Source: Cephalotus follicularis (taxonomy: Eukaryota; Streptophyta; Magnoliopsida; Oxalidales; Cephalotaceae). From it: a stretch of 64,000 nt of DNA. Below the pieces are notes generated by a model. That model did not search any database. It was not told the origin of the DNA and saw only the letters and a list, made by a program, of their open reading frames with translations. The position numbers were made by a program, and so were the translations under genes. Positions 4,137 through 64,000 of the stretch are shown piece by piece; the stretch's first letter is position 1, and every line of letters begins with the position of its first letter. The stretch is from positions 235,378-299,377 of the forward strand of contig BDDD01001002.1 of NCBI GenBank assembly GCA_001972305.1, read 5' to 3'.

Positions 4137-4264
4137 CAGTCGACTGTATACACTTGGCAGTCGACTGTCCATTCCTAGCATCAAACAGTCGACTGTTCCC
4201 CTGTGATAGTCGGTTGTTCCTCCATAAACTAGGCAGCCGACTCTTACCCTGTAACAGTCGGCTG
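4137..4264. repeat. GTCGAC-core motif array (alpha type)
   Basis: Six motifs start at 4137, 4158, 4186, 4207, 4234 and 4255: CAGTCGACTG three times, then TAGTCGGTTG, CAGCCGACTC and CAGTCGGCTG. The spacings are 21, 28, 21, 27 and 21 bp. The spacers are not alike. Confidence 0.9.
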
Positions 4265-8887: not shown

Positions 8888-9103
8888 CAGTTGGCTGTTT
8901 TTCCATAACAGTCGGCTGGATCCTTGAGTCAGTCGACTGTTCTTCCCCAACAGTCAACTTGTTCATCATGAGTAATCAGTAGTCGACTGTCTTCCTTCAA
9001 CAGTCGACTGTTCTAGGCAAAAATGCATGCACAGTCGACTGTTCTTACTAGACAGTCGGCTGGATGATCGACTAGTCGACTATTTTACTTAAACAGTCGG
9101 CTG
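8888..9103. repeat. GTCGAC-core motif array (alpha type)
   Basis: Ten motifs start at 8888, 8909, 8930, 8951, 8980, 9001, 9032, 9053, 9073 and 9094. Most are CAGTCGACTG or CAGTCGGCTG with single-base variants. Spacings are 20-21 bp except two of 29 and 31 bp. Confidence 0.9.
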
Positions 9104-11750: not shown

Positions 11751-13324
11751 TGTCACACCCCGTTATTCCATTACATAGACAACATATGCGGTGATATCAG
11801 GAATAAGTATATTAATCCAGCATTCCAAATAATAGTTCAAATATATAAGTGGAAACATTCACATCTTGATTATCAAATAAAAGTCACCTACACACAACCC
11901 ATACTACGTGCATGTATTATCCAGCGATATCCTCATACATAAAGAAAGTACAACCGTAACACATAGTGTGAACCGTTCAATACAATTACAGTACAACATA
12001 AGAATAACAACCTTAATAGAAATAGCAACTCTCCAAAATCTCCAACAGCACCTCCCGTACGTCTTTGCTTAATCTGAAATTGTAGGGGTTAGCCGTTGTC
12101 CTCACTTGGCTAACTAGGAAGATAATGCATGTTAAGGAATATATAAATGCAACATGTATGACATTTATATTGAAAATAACATAGTTAAGTATTCCAATAT
12201 ATAAGCAACCTTCCAAGTCCTTTCCCCAACTCAATCCTCCAATTCCAGCAGAATTAATCTGTATCATGCATGTTTGGAGGTTCAGTCACTTAATCAGTAA
12301 GCTAAATAATTATCTGATTACACCTACTACTCCAACAGTAGCTTATCACTAGATCATTAAGTCTCTCTTTCACATTATTAAACAACCTCTCTCCACTATT
12401 CAATTCCACTTCCAGAAATTACCATGTTTGCATGTTACAGAAGGTAGGTATAGAGGTGATTAGAACACATATAGTTATTAGCAACCACAACAGCAAGTAT
12501 AATTCAATTTAGAGGCCTATAATCTCAACATTTCTTGAACCCTTTACTAATTCCATTCCAATTCTAGAAATTTGTAACCTTAATCATGTTAACAGAAGGC
12601 ATTCTAACATACTCCTAGTTACATTATTAACAATTTACTACATCAATGATGAGCTCGGATTTGGGAACTTACCTGGAAAAAATCCAAAGCTTCTGAGTCT
12701 CTTGAACACCCCAAATCCTCCAAATGCAACTCCTACAATCCTCCAGCAAGTCTCCCTTTATCCTCAGTGTTGTCTAACTCTCAAAACACTTAGGCAGTGT
12801 CTGTTTATAAGCAAGATGTATCCTCAATCCCGTTTTCAGTCATTAATTCTTCATTCCCTTCCTCCTTCTCTCTCTCTCACATGTTCCCTTCTTTCTCACC
12901 TTTCTCTCTTCCCATTTCTGTTTGCAGGTTGCAGGTCTGCAGAGCACATGCAAAGCATTCCCTTTTTTTGCATCTTCTGGTAGCTGCTGTCTCGCATGAC
13001 ACCTGCCCATCATGAACTCCCCTTGCTTCTATCACACAGGCATGCAAAGACACCTGTTCTGTACCATTCCAGTCGACTGTCCATTCCTAGCATCAAACAG
13101 TTGACTGTTCCCCTGTGACAGTCGGCTGTTCCTCCATAAACTAGGCAGTCGACTCTTACCCTGTAACAGTTGGCTGTTTTGCCTGATTTTGGTTGCTTAA
13201 GTCTATTACCTCAATTGAATTCACCATCATAATTCATATAACAATTAGACATTAAAATTCAAGTTAGTGCATATTTTATTCATCAAGAGTACAATATACA
13301 TGGATTAAAATTGCGGTTATTACA
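11751..13324 (-). repeat. 5' LTR of element 1
   Basis: 1574 bp partner of 2880-4412 with the stem-loop block at 12089-12113. Its alpha array (13070-13176) has motif starts 13070, 13098, 13119, 13146 and 13167, one motif fewer than the other LTR. Confidence 0.95.
13070..13176. repeat. GTCGAC-core motif array (alpha type)
   Basis: Five motifs with spacings of 28, 21, 27 and 21 bp, keeping the 21/27-28 rhythm of the partner array at 4137-4264. Confidence 0.88.
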
Positions 13325-14774
13325 TGCGTCCTTGGACCAAATCGACCGAGAACCCTTGCCAGGTTTCCAACATATGTATGCTATTTGTCAGTTGTTTTTG
13401 CCCCCATCGTTTTCTTGTGCCTGGTAGCCGAACCTGCATAATTTGGAGCCTGTTTTGTTCTTCCTTGAGTATCAATCAGGTTTGTTCCTCTCCTGTTATG
13501 GTTAGCTATTGGTTTTGTTTTTAATGTTATCCAGTTGAATGTTCATATAGGCTACTAGTTTGTTTTGTTTTGATCCCTGCCATGTATGTTTTGCTATTGT
13601 TTCTGAGATTTTTAGCAAGTCCTGAGTTGTCTTGTAATGATAGAAAACAGGTTTTGAATATAACAATTGGTGTTTGACAGAAATTTGGTCATGGAATTAA
13701 GTATACAATGATTTAGAAAATTGTTTCTTTAAAGTATGATCACCAATTGCATGATTTTCCTTTTTCCTTATGTTCATGTGCATCTGTTATGTCACATAAG
13801 TCCTATGTTAATGATTAGGAACCTCTGGTAATGTGATAATCAAGTTTTGACAGAAAATTAACATAGTTTTGTTAGAATTTTGCTGTTCGGTCGAGCAGAA
13901 CAGTCGGCTGTCCATTTAAACAGTTGGCTGTTTCCCTTGAGTAGTCGACTGCCCTATAAAACAGTCAGCTGTTTTGTCTTGCACAGTCTACTGGACCCCT
14001 GTCACAGTCGACTGTCTGTAGCTTTGTTTGTATAGTGGGCTGGCCATGTGATTCAGTCGACTTCTATGCCCACAATAGTCAACTGGACTTTGTTAATGTC
14101 GGTTGGTTTTGTCCAGTAAATTTCTGGTTTCAAGCTTTGTTATCCGTTTGTTCTTCTAATGTTTTGGAGTCTTTTTTAGACACTGTTAAATTCATGTTTA
14201 ATGTTCGGAAGTGGTTTTTGAATCCTGATATGAATCATATTGCATCTTTTAGATTTTTGTGCTACAAGGGGCAATTAGAATTTTGTTGATCAATTCGTAA
14301 GACATTTATGTGATCACTTAAGGTACGGATTTTTTGCTCTTTGGCTATCTGATTTTATTCAAAATATCCCGTTTCACTTTGATGATTAAAGTACGAATTT
14401 CTATGTTCTTTGGCTATCTGGTTTTATCAAACTAAAATCAGTTTTGTTTTATGCTATGTTCCTTCATTTTATGAACTGGGTTATGATTTATGGTTTTGAT
14501 ATGCATAGAAATAAAGTCGGTATGATATTTTTGTGAAAATGAATATCTTCCTACTTTATAATTTGATTATGAAATGTTTGCGAAATGTTATGTAATTGTC
14601 TCTTTATTTTGAAAATAAATAGGATGATTTTCCGTTTATGAAAGTATAATGATTTTGATAAGGAACATGACTTCTACTATCGAAGTGTGTTAAATGAACA
14701 AGACTTTCACATTAGGAAGTGTGTTAACGTTGGATAAGGTTATATAGAGATATTTCCCACCTACGGGGCGTACT
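13325..14774 (+). repeat. 5' LTR of element 3, left part
   Basis: Matches the 3' LTR from 27940 onward and, downstream of the motif array, the LTR of element 7 (the stretch with GGTACGGATTTT and TTTGGCTATCTG). It is interrupted at 14774 by element 2 and resumes at 24914. Confidence 0.85.
13901..14014. repeat. GTCGAC-core motif array (alpha type)
   Basis: Six consecutive motifs start at 13901, 13921, 13942, 13962, 13984 and 14005: CAGTCGGCTG, CAGTTGGCTG, TAGTCGACTG, CAGTCAGCTG, CAGTCTACTG, CAGTCGACTG. Spacing is 20-22 bp throughout and the spacers are unrelated. Two or three weaker copies follow to about 14100. Confidence 0.92.
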
Positions 14775-16059: not shown

Positions 16060-16328
16060 CAGTCGGCTAGAATCTTTACCAGTCGGCTGTTCTGGGTCGA
16101 GCAGTACCAGATAGTCGGTTGGTTCCTTCTACCAGTCGACTGTCCATTAGGCAGTCGGCTGTTATCCTTCAACAGTCGACAGTTACTGCACACCCGTTCA
16201 AAAGTATTACCCAGATCACACTTCGCGCCACTTTCTGGGCAGGATGAAGTATGAACAGTCGACTGCTTTCCATTGACAGACGACTGGTTCCATTGAGTAG
16301 TCGGCTGTCTTCCTTTGGCAGTCGACTG
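16060..16328. repeat. GTCGAC-core motif array (alpha type)
   Basis: Motif starts 16060, 16080, 16112, 16133, 16152, 16173, then 16257, 16277, 16298 and 16319. Spacings within the runs are 19-21 bp. Most are CAGTCGGCTG or CAGTCGACTG. Confidence 0.9.
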
Positions 16329-23492: not shown

Positions 23493-23761
23493 CAGTCGGC
23501 TGGAATCCTTACCAGTCGGCTGTTCTGGGTCGAGCAGTACCAGATAGTCGGCTGGTTCCTTCTACCAGTCGACTGTCCATTAGGCAGTCGGCTGTTATCC
23601 GTCAACAGTAGACTGTTACTGCACACCCGTTCAAAAGTATTAGCCAGATCACACTTCCCGCCACTTTCTGGGCAGGATGAAGTATGAACAGTCGACTGCT
23701 TTCCATTGACAGTCGACTGGTTCCATTGAGTAGTCGGCTGTCCTCCTCCGACAGTCGGCTG
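23493..23761. repeat. GTCGAC-core motif array (alpha type)
   Basis: Partner of 16060-16328 with the same motif order and 19-21 bp spacing within runs. Confidence 0.88.
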
Positions 23762-24586
23762 CCCCATGAACCAGTTGCATGCAAATCGATCTATCTACTC
23801 CAATGGATCGTTGTAAATAGAGAATTCAAGCTCAAGGACAGAAACATAACTACAGGTTATCATATCGTCCATATAACCCCATATCAAACATACATTTCAT
23901 CATGCAAGTCAACACCTATGATAAGGTTCAACATGCATGCACATAATCTCATTTGATTCTTAGTAGCAAGAATAGCAAATGCAAAACAGTAGCAACTACG
24001 TCCTAAAACCAGTGGCTACAACTCACGGAACCAGGCATTCAAATCATAGAACATGCAGTAACTTTAAACTCAAAATACCATTACAACTTCCCCTACCTTT
24101 TGATTCCAAGTTGAGAATCTGTAAGTCCACCTCATTGTGTTCCAACAATGACGTTTTGGGCTCCCCAGAAGTTCCAACTCCAAGCCCAGCAGCTCCAAGA
24201 ATAGCCCAAAAGCTCCAACCCGAGCTCCAAGCTTCAACAATGGAGAACACTCCCTTCCCTCTTTTCTCTGCGTTTTTCTCTACTATCCACTTTGGTTCTT
24301 AGGCTATTCAGTACCAGGACGAAGGAGATGAGGGAAGACATTTTACGCAGGGGGGTTTCTCTCCCTCTCTTCCCTAGCTCCTCTCACATGGCACTAAATG
24401 CCATTTTCCTTTCTATCACTTGCATGCACACACACATGTCAATCCACCTTTCCCTTCAGTTTCTGCAAGTTCTAGCAGTCATGTGCATGACATACACGTT
24501 TCATCTATCATCAGATGGCGCCTGCAAGGTGCTCTTATCAGTGGCTGCATGTGATCTCGTCACATGCAATAAAACATAGCACAATC

Positions 24587-24739
24587 CAGTCGGTTGTCCA
24601 CACCCAACAGTTGCCTGCTCATCTGGCAGTTCGTTACCACGTTGCTCGACAGTTGGCCAGTCGACTGGTCCATCCCACTAGTCGACTGTTCCAAGACACA
24701 GACACCCAGCCAGCTAGTCAAACGTACCAGTCGACTGCA
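24587..24739. repeat. Second alpha motif array, 5' LTR of element 2
   Basis: Partner of 17154-17304. Confidence 0.8.
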
Positions 24740-27480: not shown

Positions 27481-27497
27481 TTTTAAGGGGGGAAGGA
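27481..27497 (+). other. Polypurine tract of element 3
   Basis: TTTTAAGGGGGGAAGGA immediately before TGTAATACCCCG, the start of the 3' LTR. Confidence 0.85.
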
Positions 27498-28370: not shown

Positions 28371-29864
28371 GTTACGAGATTTCGATGGCAGGTGTTGCAG
28401 TGTATGCAGATTTGATCGTATTGCCCGTACATAATTTCAATGTCATCTTGGGTATGGACTGGTTGTCAGATTATCGTGCACGCCTTGACTTTTATAGCAA
28501 GACTGTGGATCTTTGTCTACCAGATGGAACTACATCTCAGTTCAAGGGAGACAAAGGATTATCGACACCAATTATATCATTTATTCATGCATCGAGATTT
28601 CTGAAGAGGGGATGTGAAGGGTTTATGGCGCATGTGTATGACAGAAGAAAGGAGAAAGGTAAGCCTGGAGGAAGTTCCGATTGTGAATGATTTTTTGGAT
28701 GTGTTCCCTGCAGACTTGGTGTCTTTACCACCAAAGAGGACCATGGAGTTCCTGATTGACCTAGTACTAGGTACGACTCCTATCTCTAAGGCGCCCTACC
28801 GAATGGCTCCTGCGGAGTTGTGAGAACTGAAGTTACAGTTGCAAGACCTAATTGATAAGGGTTTTAAGCAACCCAATGTTTCTCCATGGGGCGCGCCTGT
28901 GTTATTTGTGAAAAACAAGGATGGGTCGATGAGGCTTTGCATCAACTACAGGATGTTGAATAAGGACACCATCAAAAACCAGTATCCTCTTCCACACATT
29001 GAGGATTTGTTTGACCAGCCACAGCGGTCAAGGGTGTTTTCCAAACTGGATATGAGGTCGGGTTATCACCAGCTTAGGGTGAAGGAAGGAGATGTGGAGA
29101 AGACTTCCTTCCGGACAAGGTATGGTCCCTATGAGTTCTTGGTAATGTCGTTTGGTGTCACCAACACACCAGCAGCATTCATGTCGCTGATGAATGATGT
29201 GTCCAGCCTTACCTGGATCAGTTTACTTGGATCAGTTTGTGGTAGTGTTTATCGATGACATATTGGTGTAGTCAGGGAGTGAGGAGGAACACGCCTATCA
29301 TCTGAGATTAGTTTTGCAGATTCTCAGAGAGCATCAATTGTATGCCAAGTTTGGCAAGTGTGAGTTCTGGCCTGATCATGTGATCTTTCTTGGTCACATT
29401 GTATCTGGAGAGGGTTTGGTGGTGGACCCGTCGAAGACTGATTTGGTGCGAGATTGGCCGCAACCAAGAAATATGACGGAGGTGCACAGCTTTCTTGGCT
29501 TTGCGCGATATTATCAGATATTCATTTAGAACTTCACGAGGATAGTCGCACCATTGACGAAGCTAACTCAGAAGAAGACTTTGTTCGTATGGAATGAGGA
29601 TTGTGAGGTCAGCTTTCGAGATCCGAATGATCGGTTGGTTTCCGCTCCTATTTTGTTGTTACCTGAGGGTAATGAGGGCTTTCAGTTTATAGTGATGCTT
29701 CGGGTAAGGGATTGGGTTACGTGCTGATGCAACGAGGCAGAGTGATTGCTTATGCTTCGCGGAAGCTAAAGCCGTATGAGGAGAACTACCCAACGCATGA
29801 TCTTGAATTGGTCGCGATTATTTTTGCTCTTCAGAAATGGAGACATTATTTATATGGGGCACAG
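28371..29864 (+). mobile_element. Ty3 pol of element 6, piece 1 (PR-RT-RNase H)
   Basis: Plus-strand Tekay-like pol: end of protease (MAGVAVYADLIVLPVHNFNV), RT ([40 protein letters not shown]) and RNase H ([20 protein letters not shown]). It stops at CACAG, the target site of element 4, and continues at 47569. Broken fossil, several interruptions. Confidence 0.9.
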
Positions 29865-29910
29865 TGTAACGCCCGGTATTTTCCGGAATGTAATATTTCG
29901 ATTTATGATG

Positions 29911-31177
29911 TGTTGGAAGTCTAGAGGGGGGGTGAATAGACTAATAAAAATTTATGTAGCAAATATACCACCAATAAAATCAATTAACACAAACACACAA
30001 AGCGGAAAGTAAAGAGTTTAGGGTTTAGAGATTGCAAACGGATATATAGTGGTTCGGCAAACCGCCTACGTCCACTCCCCAAGGCCTCCCCTTGAGTATT
30101 TCACTAGTATGCCCCAATCCGGGCTTGAAACTCCCACCGAGCTCCAACAACTTTCGCTCCAACCAAGCGAATTACAAATGAGCTCCAACCGAGCAATACA
30201 AGAGACAACCTCTCTTGTATGAGTGAAGTAAATGTTTAAAGGTTTACAAATTCGTAGTGAATTTGTTTACAATGAAGCTCACTATGAACAAAGCTTAGAA
30301 ATGTGTATGTAATATAAAAGTAAAGCTTTGAAATGTGTAGGAATGCTTGAATTTGATCTCTTTTGATTGTATGAATGCTTTGTATTGATCTTGAGATAGC
30401 TTGAGAGAATGTGTAACTTGAAAGCTTGATCACTTGTGCAAGAAGTCCAATTTTCCTCTTATAGTTGAGCCTCCAACGGATCTATTTTTAACTGTCTGAT
30501 ACAAATCCAGTCGGCTGGATTTGGACGGCAGCTGGCTGGATTGATGGCGCGTTTATTTGAATATAGCCGTTGGGAGTGGGTAGTCGACTGGATTCTGTAG
30601 GCAGTCGGCTGGATGTCTGGGCAGTCGACTGATGCCCTGCTTCAGTCGGCTGTTGAGGCTAATTTAGAAGTTACAAAACCTACTGCCAGATTTTGCACAA
30701 TTGAAGGCAGTCGGCTGGAACCCTGTGGCAGTCGACTGGACCCACTGGCAGTCGACTGGTACCCTGCTTCAGTCGGCTGGATTGGGTGTAAAATGATACA
30801 GAAGCTTCTGCCTGTAATTGTACCCATGGCAGTCGACTGATGCCCTGTGACAGTCGACTGGAATTGCCTGGCAGTTGACTGGAACCCTGTGTCAGTCGAT
30901 TGGTGTGCTGTTTCTGCAGATTCTTGGTTTAGGTTAAAGATGCAGTCGACTACATGATTTTGGGAGTCGACTCCTAGCCTTGGCAGTCGACTGGATTTCT
31001 CTCCAGTCGGTTGGAATTGCCTGTACCTGCATAAACATCCTTGGCACAACTTTGGACACAAGATCAAGTGAGTATATGCATTTATAACTTAGAGAATTAT
31101 GCAAACAAGTAATCTTCGTTTGTTAATCATCAAAATAACTCATGGTAAACATTTAATCGGGGTGGCAAAGGCCAACA
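29911..31177 (-). repeat. 3' LTR of copia element 5
   Basis: 1267 bp, about 90 bp longer than its partner. The length difference falls in the motif array. The array (30508-31013) takes up some 40% of the LTR. Confidence 0.95.
30508..31013. repeat. GTCGAC-core motif array (alpha type), largest
   Basis: Eighteen motifs start at 30508, 30529, 30581, 30602, 30622, 30643, 30708, 30729, 30749, 30770, 30830, 30851, 30872, 30893, 30943, 30964, 30984 and 31004. Runs of two to four copies are spaced 20-21 bp, and gaps between runs are 50-65 bp. CAGTCGACTG and CAGTCGGCTG alternate irregularly. Confidence 0.95.
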
Positions 31178-31191
31178 ATCTCCCCCTTTTT
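31178..31191 (-). other. Polypurine tract of copia element 5
   Basis: The minus strand reads AAAAGGGGGAGAT beside the 3' LTR. Confidence 0.85.
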
Positions 31192-31905
31192 GATGATTGA
31201 CAAAACATGCATATTTTGCATAAATCTTGACAAATTATACTCAATTTAGTTCAAAGTCCAAATTTTTTTTTTATCAATTAGGCATATCCAAGACACATGT
31301 CATATCAAAGTACACTTGCTCTTGCTCAATGCAAGAGTACAACCTTTTCCATCTCAAAATGCAATATATTACCAAATATCATTTCAATATGCAACTTCAA
31401 TGTAATGTGCAGAAATATAAATCTTCTCTCCCCCTTTTTGTCAAACAACAAAAAGAGAAGTGGAAGCTCCCCCTTAATCATAGCACGGATTGAAGAGCTC
31501 CCCCTCAACTTATGCATTCCTATAAAATTTAATCAATAAAAACAATGCAATAGGAGAGATCCAATAAGATCGAAGCACAATTCTATTAAACACTTGAAGT
31601 AAACACATCAAAGCAATAATATGAAGTACTTTTGCATTCAACACATAATCAAAATACATAATGTCATTAAAAGCTTAAAAACATTAGTAACATAAACACA
31701 TTGTCTTTCATATTCTTAAAACAACTAAAGACATTACAAGTGCAAAGTTCGAAAATACAAGTAGAAAAAGCATGATGATGCAAATATAAGCTCAAGATGG
31801 AGGAGGGTGCTGTGGGAAAGCGTTATGAAGCCACTGGAGGATGTCAGCTTGTCCCTGTCGAATGTCGGCCTGTCCTTGAAGAATGTTTGCTTGCCCCTCA
31901 CGAAA

Positions 31906-32946
31906 TTAATGCATTTCACCTTTGATAAACTCCATATCAGCTTGGGAAATATCCATTCTGGCCATAAGTGAATCAAGAGTAGGCCTGCTGCTACTACTCC
32001 CCGCTCCAGCACTCGGACGCATCTCATACTGCTGTGGATCGTCCTCCTCCTCCTCCTCATCATCCCCAGCCCTAACCGGCTCTGGCTCTCTTGCTTGCTC
32101 TCTACCTCTCCCTCTCACCTTGACCCACTCTCCTTCCTCAAATTCAAGGTTTAATTGTCTAAGTCCCGCCTTATTCACCAAATGCTTATGGGAAGGCTTA
32201 ACACTTTGCTCATCATCAGGGATATCTATGTTAAAAGAAGCTAGGACAGTCGAAATAATCCTACTAAGAAGCATAGGATAAGGAGTGTGATTTGGCCTAG
32301 ACAATAAGTGGTTTACAATAAGATATGGAAGGTTAATTTGGGTTCCATTCTTGACACAAGCGACGAATTTAAGGTCACGCTCGGAGGGGAGGGTGTGTGA
32401 TCCTTGTTTTGGAAGAAAAGTGTTGGTAACAAGGAGTAGAATAATCCTAGAGGCAATAGGTAAGTGACTACTAGTCACATTCATGATTGGATTGACATTT
32501 GGTTGCTTTAAACAAATCCCTAGTGCCTCGATTTTTCCTATGTCATGAAAATTAGTAATTCCCTCATTGAGAATTCCTAATGTTTCGGCAACAAGATCGG
32601 GAGTAATACAAATTGGAGTGCCTAGAACAAACGAATTGGCAATGCAAGTGGTGGAGGTTGCTAAATTGGCATAAAACATTTTGACCAACCTAGGGTATAT
32701 GGTATGTGATGAGCAAATATAGTCTAGCCAACCCATAGCATCAAACCAAGTAATTACCACAGCAAGATTACTAACCAAAACATCCTTACACAGCCATTTC
32801 TCACAATGTAGCTTAACTGAGCTAAAATAGGAATTATACCTCATCTCTTTCTCCTTTGAGAGAAAGAGGTTGTTGTCATAATCTAACTCCTCTTGAGATC
32901 CTCTTGCAAGCCTTGAAGAACTTCCTCTTTGTCTTTTAGGACCCAT
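31906..32946 (-). CDS. Extra ORF downstream of copia pol, 346 aa
   Basis: A long uninterrupted frame lies between RNase H and the 3' LTR, on the element's coding strand. It starts MGPKRQRGSSSRLARGS, has a mixed alpha-helical middle (SRIILLLVTNTFLPKQGSHT, LPYLIVNHLLSR) and an acidic Glu/Asp run followed by a Ser-rich stretch near the C-terminus. It resembles proteins catalogued as a putative plant transposon protein domain in plant retroelements. SIRE-lineage elements often carry an additional frame here, but I see no signal peptide, clear membrane segment or envelope motif. An alpha motif array lies 116-187 bp upstream of its start codon (33062-33133). Function unknown. Confidence 0.7.
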   Translation of the reverse strand: MGPKRQRGSSSRLARGSQEELDYDNNLFLSKEKEMRYNSYFSSVKLHCEKWLCKDVLVSNLAVVITWFDAMGWLDYICSSHTIYPRLVKMFYANLATSTTCIANSFVLGTPICITPDLVAETLGILNEGITNFHDIGKIEALGICLKQPNVNPIMNVTSSHLPIASRIILLLVTNTFLPKQGSHTLPSERDLKFVACVKNGTQINLPYLIVNHLLSRPNHTPYPMLLSRIISTVLASFNIDIPDDEQSVKPSHKHLVNKAGLRQLNLEFEEGEWVKVRGRGREQAREPEPVRAGDDEEEEEDDPQQYEMRPSAGAGSSSSRPTLDSLMARMDISQADMEFIKGEMH

Positions 32947-33061
32947 TGTTGATTGCAGGTTCGAAAAATGAGAGAGAAATGTGTTTTTGGCGATTTAAGG
33001 TTTGAGAGAAGTGAAGAGGGCAGGTGACAAATTGGGTTTAAAACCCTGTCTGTCAAAATTC

Positions 33062-33133
33062 CAGTCGACTGGCCACTAATGGCAGTCGACTGGATTAGCA
33101 CGCAGTCGACTGGACTAGTTGTCCAGTCGGCTG
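33062..33133. repeat. Internal alpha motif array, upstream of the extra ORF
   Basis: Four motifs start at 33062, 33083, 33103 and 33124 (CAGTCGACTG three times, then CAGTCGGCTG), spaced 21, 20 and 21 bp. This is the only such array found outside an LTR or LTR-like block, and it lies just 5' of the extra frame. Confidence 0.92.
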
Positions 33134-34599: not shown

Positions 34600-36231
34600 A
34601 AAAGTAATTGCAGCATAATAAGGTGATGGTCTAGTGTGTGAGTGATGTGAATGTGCAATTCTTCTAAAGCATTTATTCCTAGTATGTCCCATTTTATTGC
34701 AATATGTGCAATGAGGTCTTTTCCTAGCCTTTTTCAATTTAGCCTTAACCTCTAAAGGGGCATAACCTATTCCGGTCTTATCTAGGTATGACCTTTGACT
34801 ACCTAACATTTCTTCTAACTTCTTACTTCCTAATGTGAATTTACTAAAAGATTTCTCTAAATTCACATTCTTTTCTCTTAGGGTCTCTACTTCCTTTTCT
34901 AAGGTAATGTCACTAGGTGAAGTAGGTTTAGCTATGTCATTTTCCTTTTAAGCTAATTCATGTTCTAACATAGCAATGTAATTTTTTAAGTGCTCATTTT
35001 CTACAACTAGTAATTCCTTTTCCTTTTCTATACTAGTCATATTTTTCTTAAGTGAAGTGCATTGTGAACATTTTTTCTTAAACTCTACAAGCAATTCATC
35101 AAATGGAAATTGCAATTCACCAAAGGTGTAAGAGTCACCTACCTCATTTTCGATATCCTCGTCATCGTCACTCAACGCCATAAAGCATAGGTTTGCTACT
35201 TGCTCGGTGACTTCATCTTCGGAGGAGTCATCATCACTTAGGTGCCAAGCCTTGAGTACTTTCTTCTTGAATAGCTTCTTTTTCTTCAATTGTTGACAAT
35301 AACCTTTGATGTGCCCCGGTTTGTTGCATTCGAAGCATGTGGGAGGATCCATCTTGCTTCCTTCTCCCTTGTTGAAGTTTCTCCTTTGAAATCTTCTTGC
35401 CTTGTTCATCTTTGCGAATTTTGTAAACCGTTTCACAAAGAGAACATAATCCTCTTCTTCTAGCTCCTACTCACTTGATGCTTCTTCCTTGTGAGTGCTC
35501 TTGAGGGCAATGTCTTTTCTTCTTTCCTCTTGTGGCTTTGTCTCCACAAGTTTTACCGATTTCTTGTTCAACTTAACCTCATGAGTCATGAGGGAACCAA
35601 GCAATTCTTCAATCTCCATAGTCTTCAAATCTTTAGATTCTTGGATTGCCGTCACTTTGGGTTCCCATTCATCGTCGAGACACCCTAGCAATTTCCTCAC
35701 TAATTCATCATGTCCAAATACCTTACCAAGACCAAGCAAACCATTAGTAATGTCAAGCAACCGATTATACAAATTCTTAATAGATTCATTCGGTTGCATT
35801 TTGAACAATTCATAATCTCTATTTAGCAAGGCAAGTTTGGCATTCTTAACTTGCTCGGTACCCTCGTGGGTAAGAATGAGCAATTTCCACACCTCATGTG
35901 CGGAAGTACATCTCCTAACGAGATTGTATTCGGTCTTGTCTAAGGCTACAAGTAATATGTTCAAGGCCTTGTTATCTATAGTCAATTTTCTAAAGTCCTC
36001 TTCATCCCATTCGTCTTCCGGTTTGGAAACGAGTTCATTTTTGTCATTGAGCTTCATAGGGGTGTGAGGGCCATTTTTAACACTAAGCCAATTCCTAAAG
36101 TCTCTAGACTTAAGGTATATCTCCATACGGCTTTTCCAATAAGGAAAATCGTCACCACTAAAGAATGGGAACTTAAATTCGGAGACGTCGTCATTGTGTC
36201 GGGATTGGTTGTTCATGCTAGTAGAGGCCAT
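34600..36231 (-). pseudogene. gag and adjoining region, copia element 5
   Basis: Gag begins near 36231 (MASTSMNNQSRHNDD, FPFFSGDDFPYWKSRMEIYL). A capsid-like part follows (CTSAHEVWKLL, LLDITNGLLGLGKVF), then a CCHC knuckle (CFECNKPGHIKGYC) and a coiled Lys/Glu-rich stretch. A second zinc-knuckle-like segment (CTYCNKMGHTRNKC) lies downstream. Fossil, broken. Confidence 0.88.
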
Positions 36232-36273
36232 TGATCTAAACTCAAGATGTTAATCTTAATAAAGAGTTAACCC

Positions 36274-36287: not shown

Positions 36288-37463
36288 TGTTGGAAGTCTA
36301 GAGGGGGGGGTGAATAGACTAATAAAAATTTATCTATCAAATATACCACCAATAAAATCAATTAACACAAACACACAAAGCGGAAAGTAAAGAGTTTAGG
36401 GTTTAGAGATTGCAAACGGATATATAGTGGTTCGGCAAACCGCCTAAGTCCACTCCCCAAGGCCTCCCCTTGAGTATTTCACTAGTATGCCCCAATCCGG
36501 GCTTGAAACTCCCACCGAGCTCCAACAACTTTTGCTCCAACCAAGCGAATTACAAATGTGCTCCAACCGAGCAGTACAAGAGACAACCTCTCTTGTATGA
36601 GTGAAGTAAATGTTTAAAGGTTTACAAATTCGTAGTGAATTTGTTTACAATGAAGCTCACTATGAACAAAGCTTAGAAATGTGTATGTAATATAAAAGTA
36701 AAGCTTTGGAATGTGTAGGAATGCTTGAATTTGATCTCTTTTGATTGTATGAATGCTTTGTATTGATCTTGAGATAGCTTGAGAGAATGTGTAACTTGAA
36801 AGCTTGATCACTTGTGCAAGAAGTCCAATTTTCCTCTTATAGTTGAGCCTCCAACAGATCTATTTTTAACTGTCTGATACAAATCCATTCGGCTGGATTT
36901 GGACGGCAGCTGGCTGGATTGATGGCGCGTTTATTTGAATATAGCCATTGGGAGTGGGCAGTCGGCTGGATTCTGTAGGCAGTCGGCTGGATGTCTGGGC
37001 AGTCGACTGATGCCCTGCTTCAGTCGGCTGTTGAGGCTAATTTAGAAGTTACAAAACCTACTGCCAGATTTTGCACAATTGAAGGCAGTCGGCTGGAACC
37101 CTGTGGCAGCCGACTGGACCCCCTGGCAGTCGACTGGTACCCTGCTTCAGTCGGCTGGATTGGGTGTAAAATGATACAGAAGCTTCTGCCTGAAATTGTA
37201 CCCATGGCAGTCGACTGATGCCCTGTGACAGTCGACTGGAATTGCCTGGCAGTCGACTGGAACCCTGTGTCAGTCGACTGGTGTGCTGTTTCTGCAGATT
37301 CTGGGTTTAGGTTGAAGATGCAGTCGACTACATGATTTTGGACACAATATTAAGTGAGTATATGCATTTATAACTTAGAGAATTATGCAAACAAGTAATC
37401 TTCGTTTGTTAATCATCAAAATAACTCATGGTAAACATTTAATCGGGGTGGCAAAGGCCAACA
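36288..37463 (-). repeat. 5' LTR of copia element 5
   Basis: 1176 bp partner of 29911-31177, with the alpha array at 36886-37330. Confidence 0.95.
36886..37330. repeat. GTCGAC-core motif array (alpha type)
   Basis: Same order and 20-21 bp rhythm as 30508-31013, with three fewer motifs at one end. It contains one CAGCCGACTG in the opposite sense (near 37107). Confidence 0.92.
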
Positions 37464-37596: not shown

Positions 37597-37746
37597 GACA
37601 TCGACGTCTTTTTAAAGACGTCGATGCCTATTGGAACCGAGGTACACGTGACTGCATGGGCATGCACGTCGACATTTCGAGAAGGCATCGACACCTAATT
37701 AAAAAAGAAGAAAAGACATCGACGTCTAAGGAAAGACGTCGACACC
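37597..37746. repeat. GTCGAC-core motif array (beta type), element 4 5' LTR
   Basis: Motifs of the form GACATCGACGTC or GACGTCGATGCC start at 37597, 37617, 37684, 37715 and 37735, often within AAAGAC...CTTT. Neighbours are 20 bp apart in pairs. Confidence 0.9.
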
Positions 37747-38453
37747 TTTGTAAAGAACATCTGTCATGCTTTTTCGCTGGAAGAGTAACGTGCAATGGGA
37801 TCTTTGGGGGCTTCACCAGACGCCTTTTCAAGTGCCTTGTGACGTGTTGAGCATGTCGGTGTGTTGCCAAGAATGCTTAAGCATGCTCCTCACATGAAAC
37901 ATGCAAGGGAATACCACCCTAACATGAAACCTGTAAAAGAAAGAAGAATTGAAAACAAAAAGGAAACGCAGAGACCTGGAAAGTGGGAGAGAGCACGAGG
38001 GTGGCTTATTAAATGTAAAGAGAAGAATGTTGTGGGGGAGCCATCGGCATAAGAATAACCCTCCCCACTTATCTCTCTCGTTTTAGAACACCAAAGGAAA
38101 GAAAATAAAGGAAACAGTGAGTGTGAGAGCCACCATTGTTGAGCCTCGTAGCCTGAACTTGGGAACTCAAAGAGGTGGACTTTCCAGTTCCTAACTTGGA
38201 ACAATAAGGTAGGGGAAAGCCATACTGTAATTTTGAGTTTAATGTCCATGCATGGTCTATGATTCTAGATGTATAAAATGCATGATTCTTGAAATGATAT
38301 TGTTACCGGATTGATGCCATGATATGCTAGATATGTTTGGAGTATCTGCATGTTGTTTTCTTGCCATGAAAACATGTTATTATGCATGATTATGGGTTAT
38401 TAAGGCTACTGTTTATTAAGTCGTGAGGTAGAAGACGATTACTGTTGGAAAAA

Positions 38454-38779
38454 GACATCGACGCCTTTTAATTTGACATCGACGTCTTTTTCGTTTTTCC
38501 TTGTTAGTGATTGAAAGGGATTGACGTCTATGGAAAGACATCGACGCTCTAGGCTACCCACCTGGATTTTGACGTGAGAGACGTCGATGCCTAATGTTCC
38601 TACCTTAACGCGTCGACGCCATCAACAACACGCTATCGTTTTAAGGTTCCAGACCTTGAGCGTCGACGCGTGAGAAATGGACATCGACGTCTTCTGTGGA
38701 AGAACGCACTGACACTGAAACTTGGACATCGACGCCTGACGTAAAAGACATCGACGCCTTTTGGAAAGACATCGACGTC
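38454..38779. repeat. Second beta motif array, element 4 5' LTR
   Basis: Motif starts at about 38454, 38475, 38517, 38537, 38580, 38609, 38659, 38680, 38725, 38747 and 38768. Paired spacings are 20-22 bp and longer gaps are near 42-50 bp. Confidence 0.9.
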
Positions 38780-44998: not shown

Positions 44999-45148
44999 GA
45001 CATCAACGCCTTTTTAAAGACGTTGATGCCTATTGGAACCGAGGTACACGTGAATGCATGTGCATGCACGTCGACATTTCGAGAAGGCATCGACACCTTC
45101 TTACAAAAGAAGAAAAGACATCGACGTCTAAGGAAAGACGTCGACGCC
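44999..45148. repeat. GTCGAC-core motif array (beta type)
   Basis: Partner of 37597-37746. Motifs in pairs 20 bp apart, framed by AAAG and CTTT or CTAAG. Confidence 0.9.
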
Positions 45149-45915
45149 TTTGTAAAGAACATCTGTCATGCTTTTTCACTGGCAGAGTAACGTGTAATGG
45201 GATCTTTGGGGGCTTTACCAGACACCTTTTCAAGTGCCTTGTGACGTGTTGAGCATGTCGGTGAGTTGCCAGGAACGCTTAAGCATGCTCCTCACATGGA
45301 ACATGCAAGGGAATACCACCCAAACATGCAACCTGCAAAAGAAAGAAGAATAGAAAACAAAAAGGAAACGCAGAGACCTGGAAAGTGGGAGAGAGCACGA
45401 GGGTGGCTTATTAAATGTAAAGAGAAGAATGTTGGGGGGGAGCCATCTGCATAAGAATAACCCTCCCCACTTATCTCTCTCGTTTTAGAACACCAAAGGA
45501 AAGAAAAGAAAGGAAATAGTGAGTGTGAGAGCCACCATTGTTGAGCCTGGATTGAGCAAGAGATCGGAGCTCGTGGGTAGCAACTGCTAAGGGGATCTTG
45601 GAGCTGCTGGTAGCCTGAACTTGGGAACTCAAAGAGGTGGACTTTCCAGTTCCTAACTTGGAACAATAAGGTAGGGGAAAGCCATACTGTAATTTCGAGT
45701 TCAATGTCCATGCATGGTTTATGATTCTGGATGTATAAAATGCATGATTCTTGAAATGATATTGTTACCGGATTGATGCCATGATATGCTAGATATGTTT
45801 GGAGTATCTGCATGTTGTTTTCCTGCCATGAAAACCTGTTATTATGCATGATTATGGGTTATTAAGGCTACTGTTTATTAAGTCGTGAGGTAGAAGACGA
45901 TTACTGTTGGAAAAA

Positions 45916-46240
45916 GACATCGACGCCTTTTAATTTGACATCAACGTCTTTTTAGTTTTGCCTTGTTACTGATTGAAAGGGATCGACGTCTATGGAAAGA
46001 CATCGACGCTCTAGGCTACCTACCAGGATTTTGACGTGAAAGACGTCGACGCCTAAGGTTCCTACCTTAACGCGTCGACGCCATCAACAACACGCTGCGT
46101 TTTAAGGTTCTAGACCTTGAGCGTCGATGCGTGAGAAATGGACATCGACGTCTTCTGTGGAAGAACGCGCTGACACTGAAACTTGGACATCGACGCCTGA
46201 CGTAAAAGACATTGACGCCTTTTGGAAAGACATCGACGTC
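45916..46240. repeat. Second beta motif array, 3' LTR of element 4
   Basis: Partner of 38454-38779. For example, motif starts 46208 and 46229 are 21 bp apart. Confidence 0.9.
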
Positions 46241-50320: not shown

Positions 50321-50406
50321 ATCGACTTGTTTTGTTTAAAAGCGTAAAGTGTCGACTATTCAGTTTAACACACAAAAGCGTCGACAGTAAAGAAGAAAGC
50401 ATCGAC
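50321..50406. repeat. GTCGAC-core motifs (sparse)
   Basis: Cores start at 50321 (ATCGAC), 50351 (GTCGAC), 50380 (GTCGAC) and 50401 (ATCGAC), with spacings 30, 29 and 21 bp. Three are preceded by AAGC, AAGT or AAGC-like sequence, close to the gamma type read on the other strand. Confidence 0.75.
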
Positions 50407-52757: not shown

Positions 52758-52815
52758 GCGCCGACGCTCTTATTAGAACCGCCGACTCTTTGTCTGTTGT
52801 GTGGCACGTCGACGC
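52758..52815. repeat. GTCGAC-core motif array (gamma type)
   Basis: Cores GCCGAC at 52760, GCCGAC at 52781 and GTCGAC at 52808, spaced 21 and 27 bp, each followed by GCT, TCT or GCTTTG. The partner array at 59967-60096 has six cores. Confidence 0.85.
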
Positions 52816-53532
52816 TTTGTCTTTCCTTAAACTGGCCAAATGTTTTCCTAAATAGCTGAACACATTTTTACCCATAAGGAAAGTTTTTAACATACCGAAT
52901 TTTGCCATTAAACACATGATTTGTGCATTTATCAGAAAAAATTCTTTTAAAACTCAAAACTCATATATGCACTTTTTAAACACACGAACAGCAACCTTGA
53001 ACGCATTTTTCTACATCGATTTCGACGTTTTCTGAAGGTAATTTCTAAACGAAAGTTGTAGTTTATATTATGTAGTTTCTGTATCATCCTTTCATTTGTA
53101 TTAAAACCGACTATAACTTGATTTCGAGCATGATTTTTGAGGCCGGTTGAAACTAAATTCCGCTGTTATTTTTATATGTTCATTCATGGGTTTTATGCAT
53201 AACTATTGATGTTGATCCTTAAAAACAAAGAAATCATGCTATTGACGTATGTAGATATATGTATATGTCACTGATTTTAGGATTTATACAGAAAAATTCA
53301 GATTATGGTGCATGATTTACAAACTGTTCTAAACTAGAAATTTTAGTTCAAAGATTTCCATACCTTTGTTTTACTTTTGATCATGCACTAAGATAGTATA
53401 TACTGGCTTTTTTGAATTGGTATAACATGTCACAGAACCTGCATATTTGTGCTCATTGATTTTTAAAAATCGGATTTACTCATGTTTTGCAAGAAATTTT
53501 CTGCAATTGGTAATCTGTGTCTGACGCAAACC

Positions 53533-53642
53533 GTCGACGCTTTCGTTCTGAGCGTCGCCGCTTTGTACTGTTTTGTGCTTTGGTCAGTCAACACTTTGCT
53601 CGGTGCTTTGAAACCGTCGACGCCTAAGAACAGACTGTCGAC
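53533..53642. repeat. Second gamma motif array, element 7 5' LTR
   Basis: Cores at 53533 (GTCGAC), 53554 (GTCGCC), 53587 (GTCAAC), 53616 (GTCGAC) and 53637 (GTCGAC). Spacings are 21, 33, 29 and 21 bp, most followed by GCTTT. Confidence 0.88.
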
Positions 53643-59966: not shown

Positions 59967-60096
59967 GCGCCGACGCTCTTATTAGAACTGCCGACGCTTT
60001 GTCTGCTGTGTGGCACGTCGACGCCTAAACGTGTGACATCGACGCGTTTTGTGTTTAAGCGTTTAACCGTCGATGCTTTAAGTAAACAGTCGACGC
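59967..60096. repeat. GTCGAC-core motif array (gamma type)
   Basis: Cores at 59969 (GCCGAC), 59990 (GCCGAC), 60017 (GTCGAC), 60038 (ATCGAC), 60069 (GTCGAT) and 60089 (GTCGAC). Spacings are 21, 27, 21, 31 and 20 bp. Confidence 0.9.
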
Positions 60097-60866
60097 TTTA
60101 GTCATCTTCCTAAATTGTTTTGGACGGTGACAGTATTTTTGGTATGTTGGATTCTTTCCTTAAACTGGCCAACTGTTTTCCTAAATAGCTGAACGCTTTT
60201 TTACCCATAAGGAAATCTTTTAACATACCGAATTTTGCCATTAAACACACGATTTATGCATTTATTAGATTATTTTAAAACTCAAAACTCATATCTGCAC
60301 TTTTTACAAACACGAACAGCAACCTTGAACGCATTTTTCTACATCGATTTTGATGTTTTCTGAAGGTAATTTCTAAACGAAAGTTGTAGTTTATACTATG
60401 TAGTTTCTCTATCATCCTTTAATTTGTATTAAAACTGACTATAACTTGATTTCGAGCATGATTTTGGAGGCCTGTTGAAACTAAATTCTGCTGTTGTCTT
60501 TATATGTTCATTCATGGGTTTTATGCATAACTAGTGATGTTGATCCTTAAAAACAAAGAAATCATGCTACTGACGTATGTAGATATACGTATATGTCACT
60601 GATTTTAGGATTTATATAGAAAAATTCGGATTATGGTGCATGATTTACAAACTGTTCTAAACCAGAAATTTTAGTTCAGAGATTTCCATACCTTTGTTTT
60701 ACTTTTGATCATGCACTAAGATAGTATATACTGGCATTTTTGAATTGGTATAACATGTCACAGAACCTGCATATTATTGTTTGTGCTAATTGATTTTTAA
60801 AAATTGGATTTACTCATGTTTTGCAAGAAAATTTCTACAATTGGTAATCTGTGTCGGACACAAACC

Positions 60867-60980
60867 GTCAACGCTTTCGTTCTGAGCGTCGCCGCTTTGT
60901 ACTGTTTTGTGCTTTGGTCAGTCGACAGTTTGCTCGATGCTTTGAAACTGTCGACGCCTAAGAACAAACTGTCGACGCTT
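60867..60980. repeat. Second gamma motif array, element 7 3' LTR
   Basis: Cores at 60867, 60888, 60921, 60950 and 60971. The spacings of 21, 33, 29 and 21 bp are identical to the partner array at 53533. Confidence 0.9.
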
Positions 60981-63120: not shown

Positions 63121-64000
63121 TGTTGGCCTTTGCCACCCCGTTAATTGTATTAACATATGTTATTTTGATGATTAACAAACATATAACACTTGTATGCATA
63201 ATTCTCTGAGTTACAACTTCATATACTCACTTGATTTTGTGTCCAAAGTTGTGCCTAGGCTATTTCTGCAGGTACAGGGCAATCCAGCCGACTGCCAAGC
63301 AATCCAGCCGACTGCCAAGGATGAGTAGTCGACTGCCATAGGTTGAGTAGCCGCCTGGTTCTTCAAACAAGTCCAGAAACTGCAGGAACACATGATCCAG
63401 CTGACTGCCACAGGGGAGCAGTCGACTGCCAGACCAAGACAGCCGACTGAAGCAGGGCACCAGTCGACTGCCAGGGGATCCAGTCGACTGCCAGGGAATC
63501 CAGCCGACTGTCCACATTTGTGCAATTTCAGGCAGTGACTTCTGTAAACTCCATTTCTAGCTCCAACAGCCGACTGGAACAGAGCACCAGTCGAATGCCA
63601 TGTCCACCAGTCGACTGCCCAGAGGAAGCAGCCGACTGTCCATCACCAACGGCTATATTCAAAATACGCGTCATCATATCCAGCTTACTGCCGTATAAAT
63701 CCAGCCGACTGGATTTGTAACAGAACTTCAAAAATAGATTCGTTGGAGCACAAGTATAAATGCCAAAGTGGAGCATTCTTGGGGGACTCTCTTGCAATCA
63801 AAGTGAACATTCATTCTAGTCATCTCAAGCACAATTCCAAGCATTCAAAACATCAAAAGAGATCATATCAAAGTGTTTAGCATAAAAATGTGTTGTTTTT
63901 AATGCATTATTTGTGATATTTTTATGCTTGGAATAGACTACTTTGGTTGTGTTTTAATGATTTTCAGGTACAAGTTCTAAATGACCAAAGTGCAAAAATA
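63121..64000 (+). mobile_element. Start of a plus-strand copia LTR, cut by the window edge
   Basis: Begins TGTTGGCCTTTGCCACCCCG, the reverse complement of the LTR end of copia element 5, and shares the following ATAACACTTG...CTCACTTGAT stretch and an alpha motif array with it. It is therefore the 5' part of a related SIRE-like element in the opposite orientation. Internal region and second LTR lie outside the window. Confidence 0.85.
63285..63711. repeat. GTCGAC-core motif array (alpha type)
   Basis: Motif starts 63285, 63305, 63326, 63348, 63398, 63419, 63440, 63461, 63481, 63501, 63567, 63588, 63608, 63629, 63681 and 63702. Spacings within runs are 20-22 bp. CAGCCGACTG and CAGTCGACTG are intermixed, all non-palindromic copies in the same sense. 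Confidence 0.95.

What the first reader, a model, noticed from the sequence alone, without database searches (positions are those of the whole stretch)
30508..31013. Arrays of a GTCGAC-core motif at 20-22 bp spacing across unrelated retrotransposon LTRs
A 10-12 bp motif with core (G/A)(T/C)CGAC occurs in about 22 arrays in this window. Copies sit 20-22 bp apart in runs of two to six, with spacers that do not resemble one another. Clear cases are 13901-14005, 30708-30770, 30830-30893, 33062-33124 and 63398-63501. Longer gaps are often 27-33 or 50-65 bp. Twenty-one bp is two turns of B-DNA, so copies would lie on the same face of the helix. The arrays are in Ty3 and Ty1 LTRs, which share no common LTR ancestry. 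That points to selection for a cis-acting site, or to a spreading minisatellite. I know of LTR enhancer repeats in plants (for example in Tnt1 and Tto1) but not of this one, and I could not search the literature.
Basis: partly seen in the sequence, partly recalled or inferred. Interest (0 to 1): 0.88.

Follow-up and report, generated by a model that had tools for sequence, protein, structure and literature searches.

The report
Shared directional LTR enhancer-like motif arrays
In this pitcher-plant genome, unrelated families of jumping genes carry rows of the same ten-letter DNA word, mostly pointing the same way and spaced two turns of the double helix apart in front of their promoters, which looks like a shared set of landing sites for a DNA-binding protein.

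Summary
The host is Cephalotus follicularis or a near relative. The genome holds 176,554 GTCGAC pairs 19-24 bp apart, against 1,985 for the reversed pattern. The main word, CAGTCGACTG/CAGCCGACTG, is directional: direct CAGCCGACTG pairs number 32,649, convergent pairs 376. Longer gaps also follow the helical period. Arrays occur in a Sirevirus (Ty1/copia; LTRs and just upstream of its env-like ORF) and in several Ty3 LTR families. The Sirevirus arrays match the known 'repeated motif' (Bousios 2010) in layout. New here: the same word in Ty3 LTRs whose U3s show no homology to the Sirevirus one, at least three motif 'dialects', and dialect change between elements with 83-91% identical interiors. 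Motif cores diverge as fast as spacers between the two LTRs of one element (ratio 1.03), but half as fast between elements (0.48-0.53), fitting selection while elements are active. Best reading: modular U3 arrays of dsDNA protein sites, probably enhancers for a host factor that reads RYCGAC (CRT/DRE-like). The binder is unidentified. A VANC-like anti-silencing role remains open.

The parts
29911..31177 (-). E5a, 3' LTR of the Sirevirus (TGTTGG...CCAACA)
36288..37463 (-). E5b, 5' LTR of the Sirevirus; TSD TGATG at 29906-29910 and 37464-37468
36961..37328 (-). array of 13 cores, dialect A, in LTR E5b
33064..33131 (-). array of 4 cores, dialect A, between pol and the env-like ORF of the Sirevirus
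31906..32994 (-). env-position ORF of the Sirevirus, Pfam PF20167
33351..34496 (-). copia reverse transcriptase ORF (RVT_2)
35467..36249 (-). copia gag ORF (Retrotran_gag_2)
31180..31505 (-). four polypurine tracts AGGGGGAG (first bases 31505, 31474, 31435, 31187), the last followed by AT and the LTR
63287..63709 (+). 12 cores (two arrays), dialect A, in a second Sirevirus LTR (E6, 63120-63868) in the opposite orientation
4139..4262 (-). array of 6 cores, dialect A, in Ty3 LTR E1a (2880-4413)
13072..13153 (-). 3 cores, dialect A, in Ty3 LTR E1b (11751-13325)
8911..9101 (-). array of 9 cores, dialect A, in an E2-like Ty3 LTR remnant
13903..14103 (-). 5 cores plus degraded copies, dialect A, remnant with weak homology to E4-lineage dialect-A LTRs
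16062..16326 (-). two arrays (9 cores), dialect A, in Ty3 LTR E2a (14775-17479)
23495..24735 (-). three arrays (13 cores), dialect A, in Ty3 LTR E2b (22207-24913)
37600..38776 (+). two arrays (16 cores), dialect B (GACATCGACG[TC]C), in Ty3 LTR E3a (37464-40107)
45070..46237 (+). two arrays (13 cores), dialect B, in Ty3 LTR E3b (44866-47570)
52760..53642 (+). 7 cores, mostly dialect C (GTCGACGCTTT-like), in Ty3 LTR E4a (52632-55060)
59969..60976 (+). two arrays (9 cores), dialect C, in Ty3 LTR E4b (59841-62395)
50321..50406 (+). array of 4 cores, dialect C-like, element not assigned

Best explanation
The arrays are modular cis-regulatory cassettes in the U3 part of LTRs, upstream of the promoter; in the Sirevirus a second cassette lies upstream of the env-like ORF. 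Each 10-12 bp word is a directional binding site on double-stranded DNA for a sequence-specific protein. Sites sit 20-21 bp apart, or at other near-multiples of the helical period, so that bound molecules line up on one face and can act together. Array members usually point the same way. Arrays grow and shrink by local tandem duplication, but selection keeps the words while an element family is active. Elements can exchange or rebuild this module and so move between at least three dialects that share the core RYCGAC. Shown here: direction, spacing and helical phasing, position in the 5' part of the LTR, dialect change between close relatives, and conservation between elements. Inferred: that a protein binds, that the effect is activation, and that the binder is a host factor with CRT/DRE-like (AP2/ERF, CBF/DREB-type) recognition; this last step is the weakest.
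For: Spacing. Helical phase of gaps of 25-90 bp: R = 0.44 at 10.5 bp, 0 of 20,000 simulations for the 20 stretches (n = 81 gaps) and p = 5e-5 in the window (n = 53). Direction: 32,649 direct against 376 convergent CAGCCGACTG pairs genome-wide (reversed-pattern controls 92 and 0); 106 same against 6 opposite neighbours in all fetched sequence used. Doubly substituted CAGCCGGCTG: 3 found, 35 expected if the half-sites were independent. Selection: core/spacer divergence 1.03 in seven LTR or local duplicate pairs, 0.48 in eight between-element pairs, 0.53 (Fisher p = 0.003) in the five pairs with spacer divergence under 0.2. Module change. Same word in Ty1 and Ty3. PLACE lists GTCGAC as the preferred HvCBF2 site and RYCGAC as CBFHV.
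Against: No binding, expression or methylation data exist here. RYCGAC was also my search pattern, so its fit to CRT/DRE is partly built in. A CBF site in the tomato Rider U3 did not confer a cold response (PMC6762207, passages). Orientation relative to transcription is not universal: E4-lineage dialect-A arrays (3 sense, 8 antisense) and L010/L011/L026 dialect-B arrays run the other way. TATA-like boxes downstream of the arrays were found by a strict pattern in E5, E1 and E2, but not clearly in E3 and not in E4. The best period of the long gaps is 11.0, not 10.5, in the 20 stretches, and for window gaps of 25-60 bp it is 15.9. One of the five well-aligned pairs (L024-L025) shows no core conservation (0.073 against 0.060), and alignment of repeats can favour motif-to-motif matches. 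Genome-wide, double-substituted sites do exist (2,096 + 2,083 pairs). The dialect-B full palindrome, absent from the first sample, occurs 4 times in the second.
Confidence: 0.6

Rival explanations
1. VANC-like anti-silencing targets: the words are target sites of a mobile-element-encoded protein that removes DNA methylation, and unrelated elements have captured the target of that protein.
For: [quoted passage not shown] The arrays here share the same-orientation and dialect features.
Against: The VANC21 word (YAGTATTAY) is different. No VANC-type gene was sought in this genome. Where TATA-like boxes were found (E5, E1, E2) the arrays sit upstream of them, as in Sireviruses.
Confidence: 0.15
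2. Neutral spreading minisatellite: the arrays are ordinary 21-bp tandem repeats that spread by duplication, gene conversion and copying, without function.
For: Tandem Repeats Finder reports many of them as 20-22 bp repeats. Spacers within an array (mean identity 0.384) are somewhat more alike than shuffled ones (0.278), and Sirevirus against Ty3 spacers (0.318) lie a little above shuffled.
Against: Duplication should carry the spacers along, yet the word is conserved far better than the spacers. Gaps of 29-31, 50 and 71 bp keep the helical phase without being multiples of 21. Core conservation appears between elements and is absent between LTRs of one element.
Confidence: 0.12
3. Shared origin: one array module moved between Copia and Ty3 elements by template switching or insertion, and has diverged since. 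This concerns the source and can be true together with the best explanation.
For: The spacer word CAGGG stands mostly at the same place (+11 from the core) in Sirevirus (15 of 59 spacers, 0.7 expected) and Ty3 E1 arrays (3 of 17, 0.15 expected), and inverted in E4-lineage arrays (CCCTG in 5 of 43, 0.35 expected; CAGGG in 2 of 43, 0.25 expected). Spacer columns of Sirevirus and Ty3 correlate (0.35, p = 0.0004).
Against: CAGGG is absent from E2 spacers (0 of 15). With motifs masked, the Sirevirus U3 group shows no homology to the Ty3 U3 groups at E 1e-3, apart from a 37-bp overlap at a slice edge in L010. CAGGG could itself be a second binding site, one helical turn away.
Confidence: 0.35
4. RNA-level role: the self-complementary words form hairpins in the transcript for packaging, dimerisation or small-RNA production, as proposed for maize Sirevirus palindromes.
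For: Clusters of palindromes in maize Sirevirus LTRs attract small RNAs (Bousios 2016 as described in PMC10760457, passages). Six of the seven arrays folded better than shuffles on the sense strand at z about -1.9 or lower; the array before the env-like ORF (-8.6) and the dialect-B array of L011 (-10.4) strongly so.
Against: In four of the five dialect-A arrays tested, and in dialect-B E3a, the sense strand folds less well than the antisense (E5a z -3.4 against -9.3; L014 +0.4 against -5.6); L011 is the opposite and the array before the env-like ORF is equal. The favoured sense variant CAGCCGACTG puts C opposite A when it pairs with another copy. Helical phasing is a DNA property.
Confidence: 0.07

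Closest known systems
Sirevirus repeated motif (RM), Bousios et al. 2010, PMC2829016
   Same: Many copies of a short dyad word in the upper half of the LTR before the TATA box, plus extra copies just upstream of the ENV gene; spacers diverge; one listed RM (Vitis, CGGTCGACCG) contains GTCGAC.
   Different: Described there as Sirevirus-specific, absent from the classic Ty1/copia elements compared, with a CGG-CCG signature. Here the main word lacks that signature, is directional, is helically phased, and also sits in Ty3 LTRs. Neither Ty3 elements nor spacing are treated in the sections I read.
Modular U3 evolution of the Tnt1 superfamily (PMC1838419, passages)
   Same: Related elements with similar coding regions but different U3 regulatory modules.
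   Different: There one Copia superfamily in Solanaceae. Here U3 modules differ while a shared word crosses the Ty1/Ty3 divide.
VANC target motifs of VANDAL elements (PMC5735166, passages)
   Same: Short words in one orientation, tandem and dense in non-coding DNA, differing between related elements.
   Different: DNA transposons with their own VANC protein and a different word; no LTR or promoter position.
CRT/DRE elements (PLACE CBFHV RYCGAC; CRTDREHVCBF2 GTCGAC; seen in tables of PMC4222965 and PMC4553201)
   Same: The core RYCGAC, directional.
   Different: By recall, known sites are single or few in cold and drought promoters; no binding shown here.
SIRC, short interrupted repeat cassettes in Arabidopsis (PMC10342631, passages)
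   Same: Short direct repeats with unlike spacers, common in mobile elements.
   Different: Defined by software on 2-8 repeats of 10-29 bp of any word; no common word, helical phase or LTR position in the passages I saw.

Membership tests
Sirevirus (element E5) | Several AGGGGGAG polypurine tracts upstream of the 3' LTR | tested here: met
   4 copies at 31505, 31474, 31435, 31187 (minus strand); definition from PMC2829016
Sirevirus (element E5) | AT/TG attachment site after the terminal PPT | tested here: met
   AGGGGGAG-AT-TGTTGG read on the minus strand at 31187-31172; definition
Sirevirus (element E5) | CA/ATTGG junction and PBS TATCAGAGC | tested here: met
   CCAACA-ATTGG-TATCAGAG, 8 of 9 PBS bases (last base differs); definition
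Sirevirus (element E5) | ENV-like ORF downstream of pol (present in some members) | tested here: inconclusive
   ORF 31906-32994 in that place matches PF20167, 'putative plant transposon protein'; no search names it envelope
Sirevirus repeated motif (E5 arrays) | At least 8 copies in the upper half of the LTR, upstream of TATA | tested here: met
   16 cores at LTR positions 166-662 of 1267 (E5a) and 13 at 135-497 of 1176 (E5b), TATA-like box at 714 and 622; another TATA-like match lies at 91 in both
Sirevirus repeated motif (E5 arrays) | Further copies before ENV in ENV-bearing members | tested here: met
   4 copies at 33064-33131, between pol and the env-like ORF
Sirevirus repeated motif (E5 arrays) | Dyad-symmetric word with CGG-CCG signature | tested here: not met
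   Main words CAGTCGACTG and CAGCCGACTG; the full CGG-CCG form CAGCCGGCTG is rare. One listed RM, Tnd-1, lacks it too
Sirevirus repeated motif (Ty3 arrays) | Resides in a Sirevirus | tested here: not met
   E2 and E3 have RVT_1 and RVP_2 ORFs, E4 SH3_Tf2-1 and a chromodomain, E1 SH3_Tf2-1 and an integrase C-terminal domain, E1 with 67% nucleotide identity to E3 over 3.2 kb
CRT/DRE enhancer | RYCGAC core | tested here: inconclusive
   The dialects fit, but the pattern was also the search pattern; among one-mismatch neighbours of CAGTCGACTG the GCCGAC form is by far the commonest (84; next 30, the rest at most 7)
CRT/DRE enhancer | Binding by CBF/DREB and cold or drought response | not testable with these tools
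   no binding or expression data
VANC targets | Same-orientation tandem words that differ between related elements | tested here: met
VANC targets | YAGTATTAY-type word and a VANC gene | not tested
   The word seen here is different; no search for a VANC gene was made

The most novel reading that the evidence does not exclude
Most LTR retrotransposons of this genome, from both superfamilies, run on one shared cis-regulatory code: helically phased, directional RYCGAC words with interchangeable dialects. Element families switch dialect by swapping U3 modules, following changes in a small set of paralogous trans-acting factors (host or element-encoded). This would be a coevolving lock and key that drove much of the genome's growth.
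Probability: 0.35. Interest if true: 0.87.

Novelty: new variant of a known kind. Interest (0 to 1): 0.68.

Why it matters
Why a few retrotransposon lineages come to fill a plant genome is an open question. Here a short core with fixed spacing and direction recurs more than a hundred thousand times in one genome. In the parts sampled it lies in unrelated element families, changes dialect between close relatives, and behaves as if selected while elements are active. That makes a shared trans-acting factor directly testable (pull-down with a phased array, DAP-seq). It also extends the Sirevirus repeated motif, described as specific to one Copia genus, to Ty3 elements.

Tried and rejected
Simple palindrome model: rejected for dialect A, because direct neighbours outnumber convergent ones and the doubly substituted form is depleted. 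For dialect B it is open: the full palindrome was 0 in the window and first 20 stretches but 4 in six further stretches.

Universal sense-strand polarity: suspected from the window, then dropped; E4-lineage dialect-A arrays and the L010/L011/L026 dialect-B arrays run the other way.

Spacers wholly unlike: dropped after the CAGGG count. One control pattern, CAGC[TC][AG], overlaps CAGCCG and is not a clean control (24 of 69 gaps at 19-22 bp); the other three gave 2 of 22, 1 of 5 and 1 of 20. The genome-wide reversed-pattern control is itself enriched 4-fold at 19-24 bp.

Relatives elsewhere: the exact array pattern found nothing in viral contigs, and pol pieces of E2 and E5 found no confirmed relative there. 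Other plants could not be searched, so 'in related species' is untested except through PMC2829016.

Collecting more elements of the E3 lineage by DNA search did not complete, so the dialect picture rests on the window and 26 stretches (homology worked out for 20 of them). For doubly substituted pairs genome-wide, one search gives 2,096 + 2,083, but no matched count for single substitutions with any neighbour was obtained, so I claim depletion only from the local sample.

Literature: Bousios 2016 (PMC4728375) is not held; it is cited only as described in PMC10760457. Xue 2003 was seen only as a title in a reference list; HvCBF1 work of 2002 is recalled.
Full report
What the window is. It is a stretch of nested LTR retrotransposons from a plant. 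Its env-position ORF is 96% identical (over 86% of its length) to a Cephalotus follicularis protein, and the 120 listed of 296 hits are all named Cephalotus. It lies in a 1.58 Gb assembly as contig C1002:235378-299377. Self-comparison gives five LTR pairs. E1 (2880-4413 and 11751-13325), E2 (14775-17479 and 22207-24913), E3 (37464-40107 and 44866-47570) and E4 (52632-55060 and 59841-62395) belong to Ty3 elements; E5 (29911-31177 and 36288-37463) belongs to a Copia element. E6 (63120-63868) is an LTR related to E5. The Pfam domains agree: RVT_1 and RVP_2 in E2 and E3, SH3_Tf2-1 with a chromodomain in E4, SH3_Tf2-1 with an integrase C-terminal domain in E1, and RVT_2 and Retrotran_gag_2 in E5.

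E5 is a Sirevirus by tests taken from Bousios et al. 2010 (PMC2829016; I read the abstract, sections 6, 7, 9-12 and 19, and passages). It has four AGGGGGAG tracts, the AT/TG attachment site, and the CA/ATTGG junction with 8 of 9 PBS bases. That paper describes a 'repeated motif' in 13 Sireviruses: a dyad word in many copies in the upper LTR half before the TATA box, with more copies before the ENV gene. The arrays in E5 fit this layout, including the four copies at 33064-33131 between pol and the env-like ORF. So the Sirevirus part is a new member of a known kind, although the CGG-CCG signature is not met by the main word.

Chance. With the core [AG][CT]CGAC on either strand the window has 187 sites against 48 in shuffles, and 66 neighbour gaps of 19-22 bp against 0.19. 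In 20 stretches of 10 kb from the same genome the gap histogram peaks at 21 bp (82), with small peaks near 42 and 64, and CAGCCGACTG, CAGTCGACTG and AAGACATCGA stand among the commonest 10-mers after low-complexity words. Six further stretches of 6 kb repeat the peak. Genome-wide, GTCGAC pairs with starts 8-38 bp apart number 219,038 (reversed pattern 3,939), and 176,554 of them (reversed pattern 1,985) lie at 19-24 bp; the tool calls its repeat counts lower bounds. Per distance that is 17 times more than elsewhere in the range. The reversed pattern, CAGCTG, is also enriched there, about 4-fold, probably because degraded copies of the word give CAGCTG (CAGCTGACTG is seen 9 times in the sample).

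The word. The exact word CAGTCGACTG occurs 83 times in the window plus 20 stretches and CAGCCGACTG 84 times. Apart from a change of the terminal base (30), no other one-mismatch neighbour exceeds 7. The doubly changed CAGCCGGCTG occurs once where 21 are expected if the two halves vary independently; with all fetched stretches and a free terminal base, 3 where 35 are expected. Neighbouring asymmetric copies point the same way 106 times and opposite 6 times. Genome-wide, direct CAGCCGACTG pairs number 16,269 + 16,380 (controls 55 + 37) and convergent pairs 376 (control 0); divergent pairs were not counted. Over 57 arrays, 178 of 200 asymmetric copies agree with their array's majority, against 140 expected. 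The apparent palindrome is thus a directional site, CAG[TC]CGACTG. These counts include related copies, so p-values are not independent evidence. Double-changed sites do occur genome-wide (2,096 + 2,083 pairs).

Phase. Gaps longer than 24 bp are not mainly multiples of 21; 27-31, 49-52 and 70-73 are common. They still follow the helix: for neighbour gaps of 25-90 bp the resultant at 10.5 bp is 0.44 in the 20 stretches (n = 81, none of 20,000 simulations as high; best single period 11.0) and 0.44 in the window (n = 53, p = 5e-5; best 10.6). For window gaps of 25-60 bp alone it is 0.45 (p = 0.0016), but there a period of 15.9 fits slightly better (0.485). The mean angle is 1-2 bp short of an exact multiple.

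Dialects. Dialect A is CAG[TC]CGACTG (E1, E2, E5, E6 and others). Dialect B is GACATCGACG[TC]C, which also occurs as GACGTCGACGTC (E3, L010, L011, L026, L033, L034). Dialect C is GTCGACGCTTT-like (E4). Two comparisons show a change of dialect between close relatives. First, E2 and E3 are 83% identical over 6 kb of interior plus adjacent LTR, and their LTRs align on both sides of the array interval (E2 770-871 and from 1459; E3 699-801 and from 1353) but not across it. E2 has dialect A and E3 dialect B. Second, E4 and L018 share 91% of an internal stretch and 83% of the LTR after the array, but over the first 1230 bp of the LTR no alignment is found at E 1e-4; E4 has dialect C and L018 dialect A. 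L026 joins the E4 lineage by 76-77% over about 675 columns of LTR and has dialect B.

The reverse also holds. With motifs masked, dialect-A arrays fall into separate U3 groups at E 1e-3: Sirevirus; E1 with L017 and an L018 array; E2 with the 8.9-kb remnant; and L018-type E4 relatives (with L021, L023, L024, L025 and, by shorter matches, the 13.9-kb remnant and a second L024 array). A further small group (L009, L018 and L023 arrays) lies in or near stretches that match the interior of E5. The Sirevirus group has no link to the Ty3 groups beyond a 37-bp overlap at a slice edge. Among the Ty3 groups there are two weak links from L017 (60 bp to L024, E = 0.001; 69 bp to a dialect-B LTR of L026, E = 4e-4), and E2 shares U3 backbone with dialect-B E3. 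Dialect B falls into two groups. Some members of a group join only through others.

Selection. In seven pairs that were identical or nearly so when formed (five LTR pairs, and two local pairs at 93-94% identity that I take as duplicates), cores and spacers differ equally: 39/852 against 412/9233, ratio 1.03. In eight between-element pairs the ratio is 0.48. In the five of these with spacer divergence under 0.2, where alignment is safer, it is 0.53 (37/504 against 376/2713; counts run in both directions and were halved for a Fisher test, p = 0.003). One of the five, L024-L025, shows no conservation. The pattern is what a site would give that matters to the active element and is neutral after insertion.

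Spacers. Mean identity of the 10-11 bp spacers is 0.384 within an array, 0.398 between arrays of one family, 0.318 between Sirevirus and Ty3, and 0.278 after shuffling. Part of the excess is CAGGG, mostly at +11 from the core: 15 of 59 Sirevirus spacers (0.7 expected), 3 of 17 E1 spacers (0.15 expected), 0 of 15 E2 spacers (0.14 expected), and inverted (CCCTG) in 5 of 43 E4-lineage spacers (0.35 expected), where CAGGG itself is in 2 of 43 (0.25 expected). This may be a second weak site one turn away, or a trace of shared origin.

Mechanism. A selected, directional, helically phased word upstream of promoters is best read as a protein site on DNA. RNA structure is less likely but not excluded. 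Of seven arrays folded, the sense strand folds less well than the antisense in five (four of five dialect-A arrays, and E3a); the array before the env-like ORF folds strongly on both strands, and dialect-B L011 folds better on the sense strand; one (L014) is no better than shuffles on the sense strand. The core RYCGAC is listed in PLACE as the site of barley CBF1/CBF2 and GTCGAC as the preferred HvCBF2 site (tables in PMC4222965 and PMC4553201, passages only). This makes a CBF/DREB-type AP2 factor the first candidate, with the warning that a CBF site in the tomato Rider U3 gave no cold response (PMC6762207, passages). The same-orientation, dense, dialect-changing layout also recalls VANC targets (PMC5735166, passages), so an anti-silencing factor is the main functional rival.

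Known or new. Modular U3 change is known in Tnt1 (PMC1838419, passages), and repeated motifs are known in Sireviruses. In the listings of the searches made I found no account of one word shared by Copia and Ty3 LTRs of a plant, of its helical phasing, or of dialect change. The library holds open-licence papers only, and I saw most listed papers by title or abstract start, so this is not proof of absence. PMC10760457 reports that the maize Sirevirus palindrome is also the commonest motif in structured regions of Helitrons (passages), so sharing of such a word across element types has a precedent. I rate the whole a new variant of a known kind.

Noticed in passing
29906-29910 and 37464-37468: The Sirevirus E5 inserted into the first five bases of the E3 5' LTR; the target duplication TGATG is the start of that LTR.
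   Followed up: partly
48927-50172: A run of degenerate tandem repeats (CCATAACCAT-like, periods 11-53 bp) unlike the arrays studied here.
   Followed up: no
39384-39444 and 46840-46911: A 31-bp tandem duplication in both LTRs of E3, outside the arrays.
   Followed up: no
31834-31886: A 21-bp repeat (2.5 copies, GTCAGC-like core, one copy with GTCGGC at 31864) just past the 3' end of the env-like ORF 31906-32994; perhaps a decayed small array, not counted as one.
   Followed up: no
spacers of 30510-31011 and 4139-4262: CAGGG recurs 11 bp from the core start in Sirevirus and E1 arrays, possibly a second site one helical turn away.
   Followed up: partly
L011:1364-1786 and L011:7141-7500: Dialect-B arrays on both sides of a stretch 71-81% identical to window 24914-29865, suggesting that this lineage's LTR uses dialect B.
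   Followed up: partly
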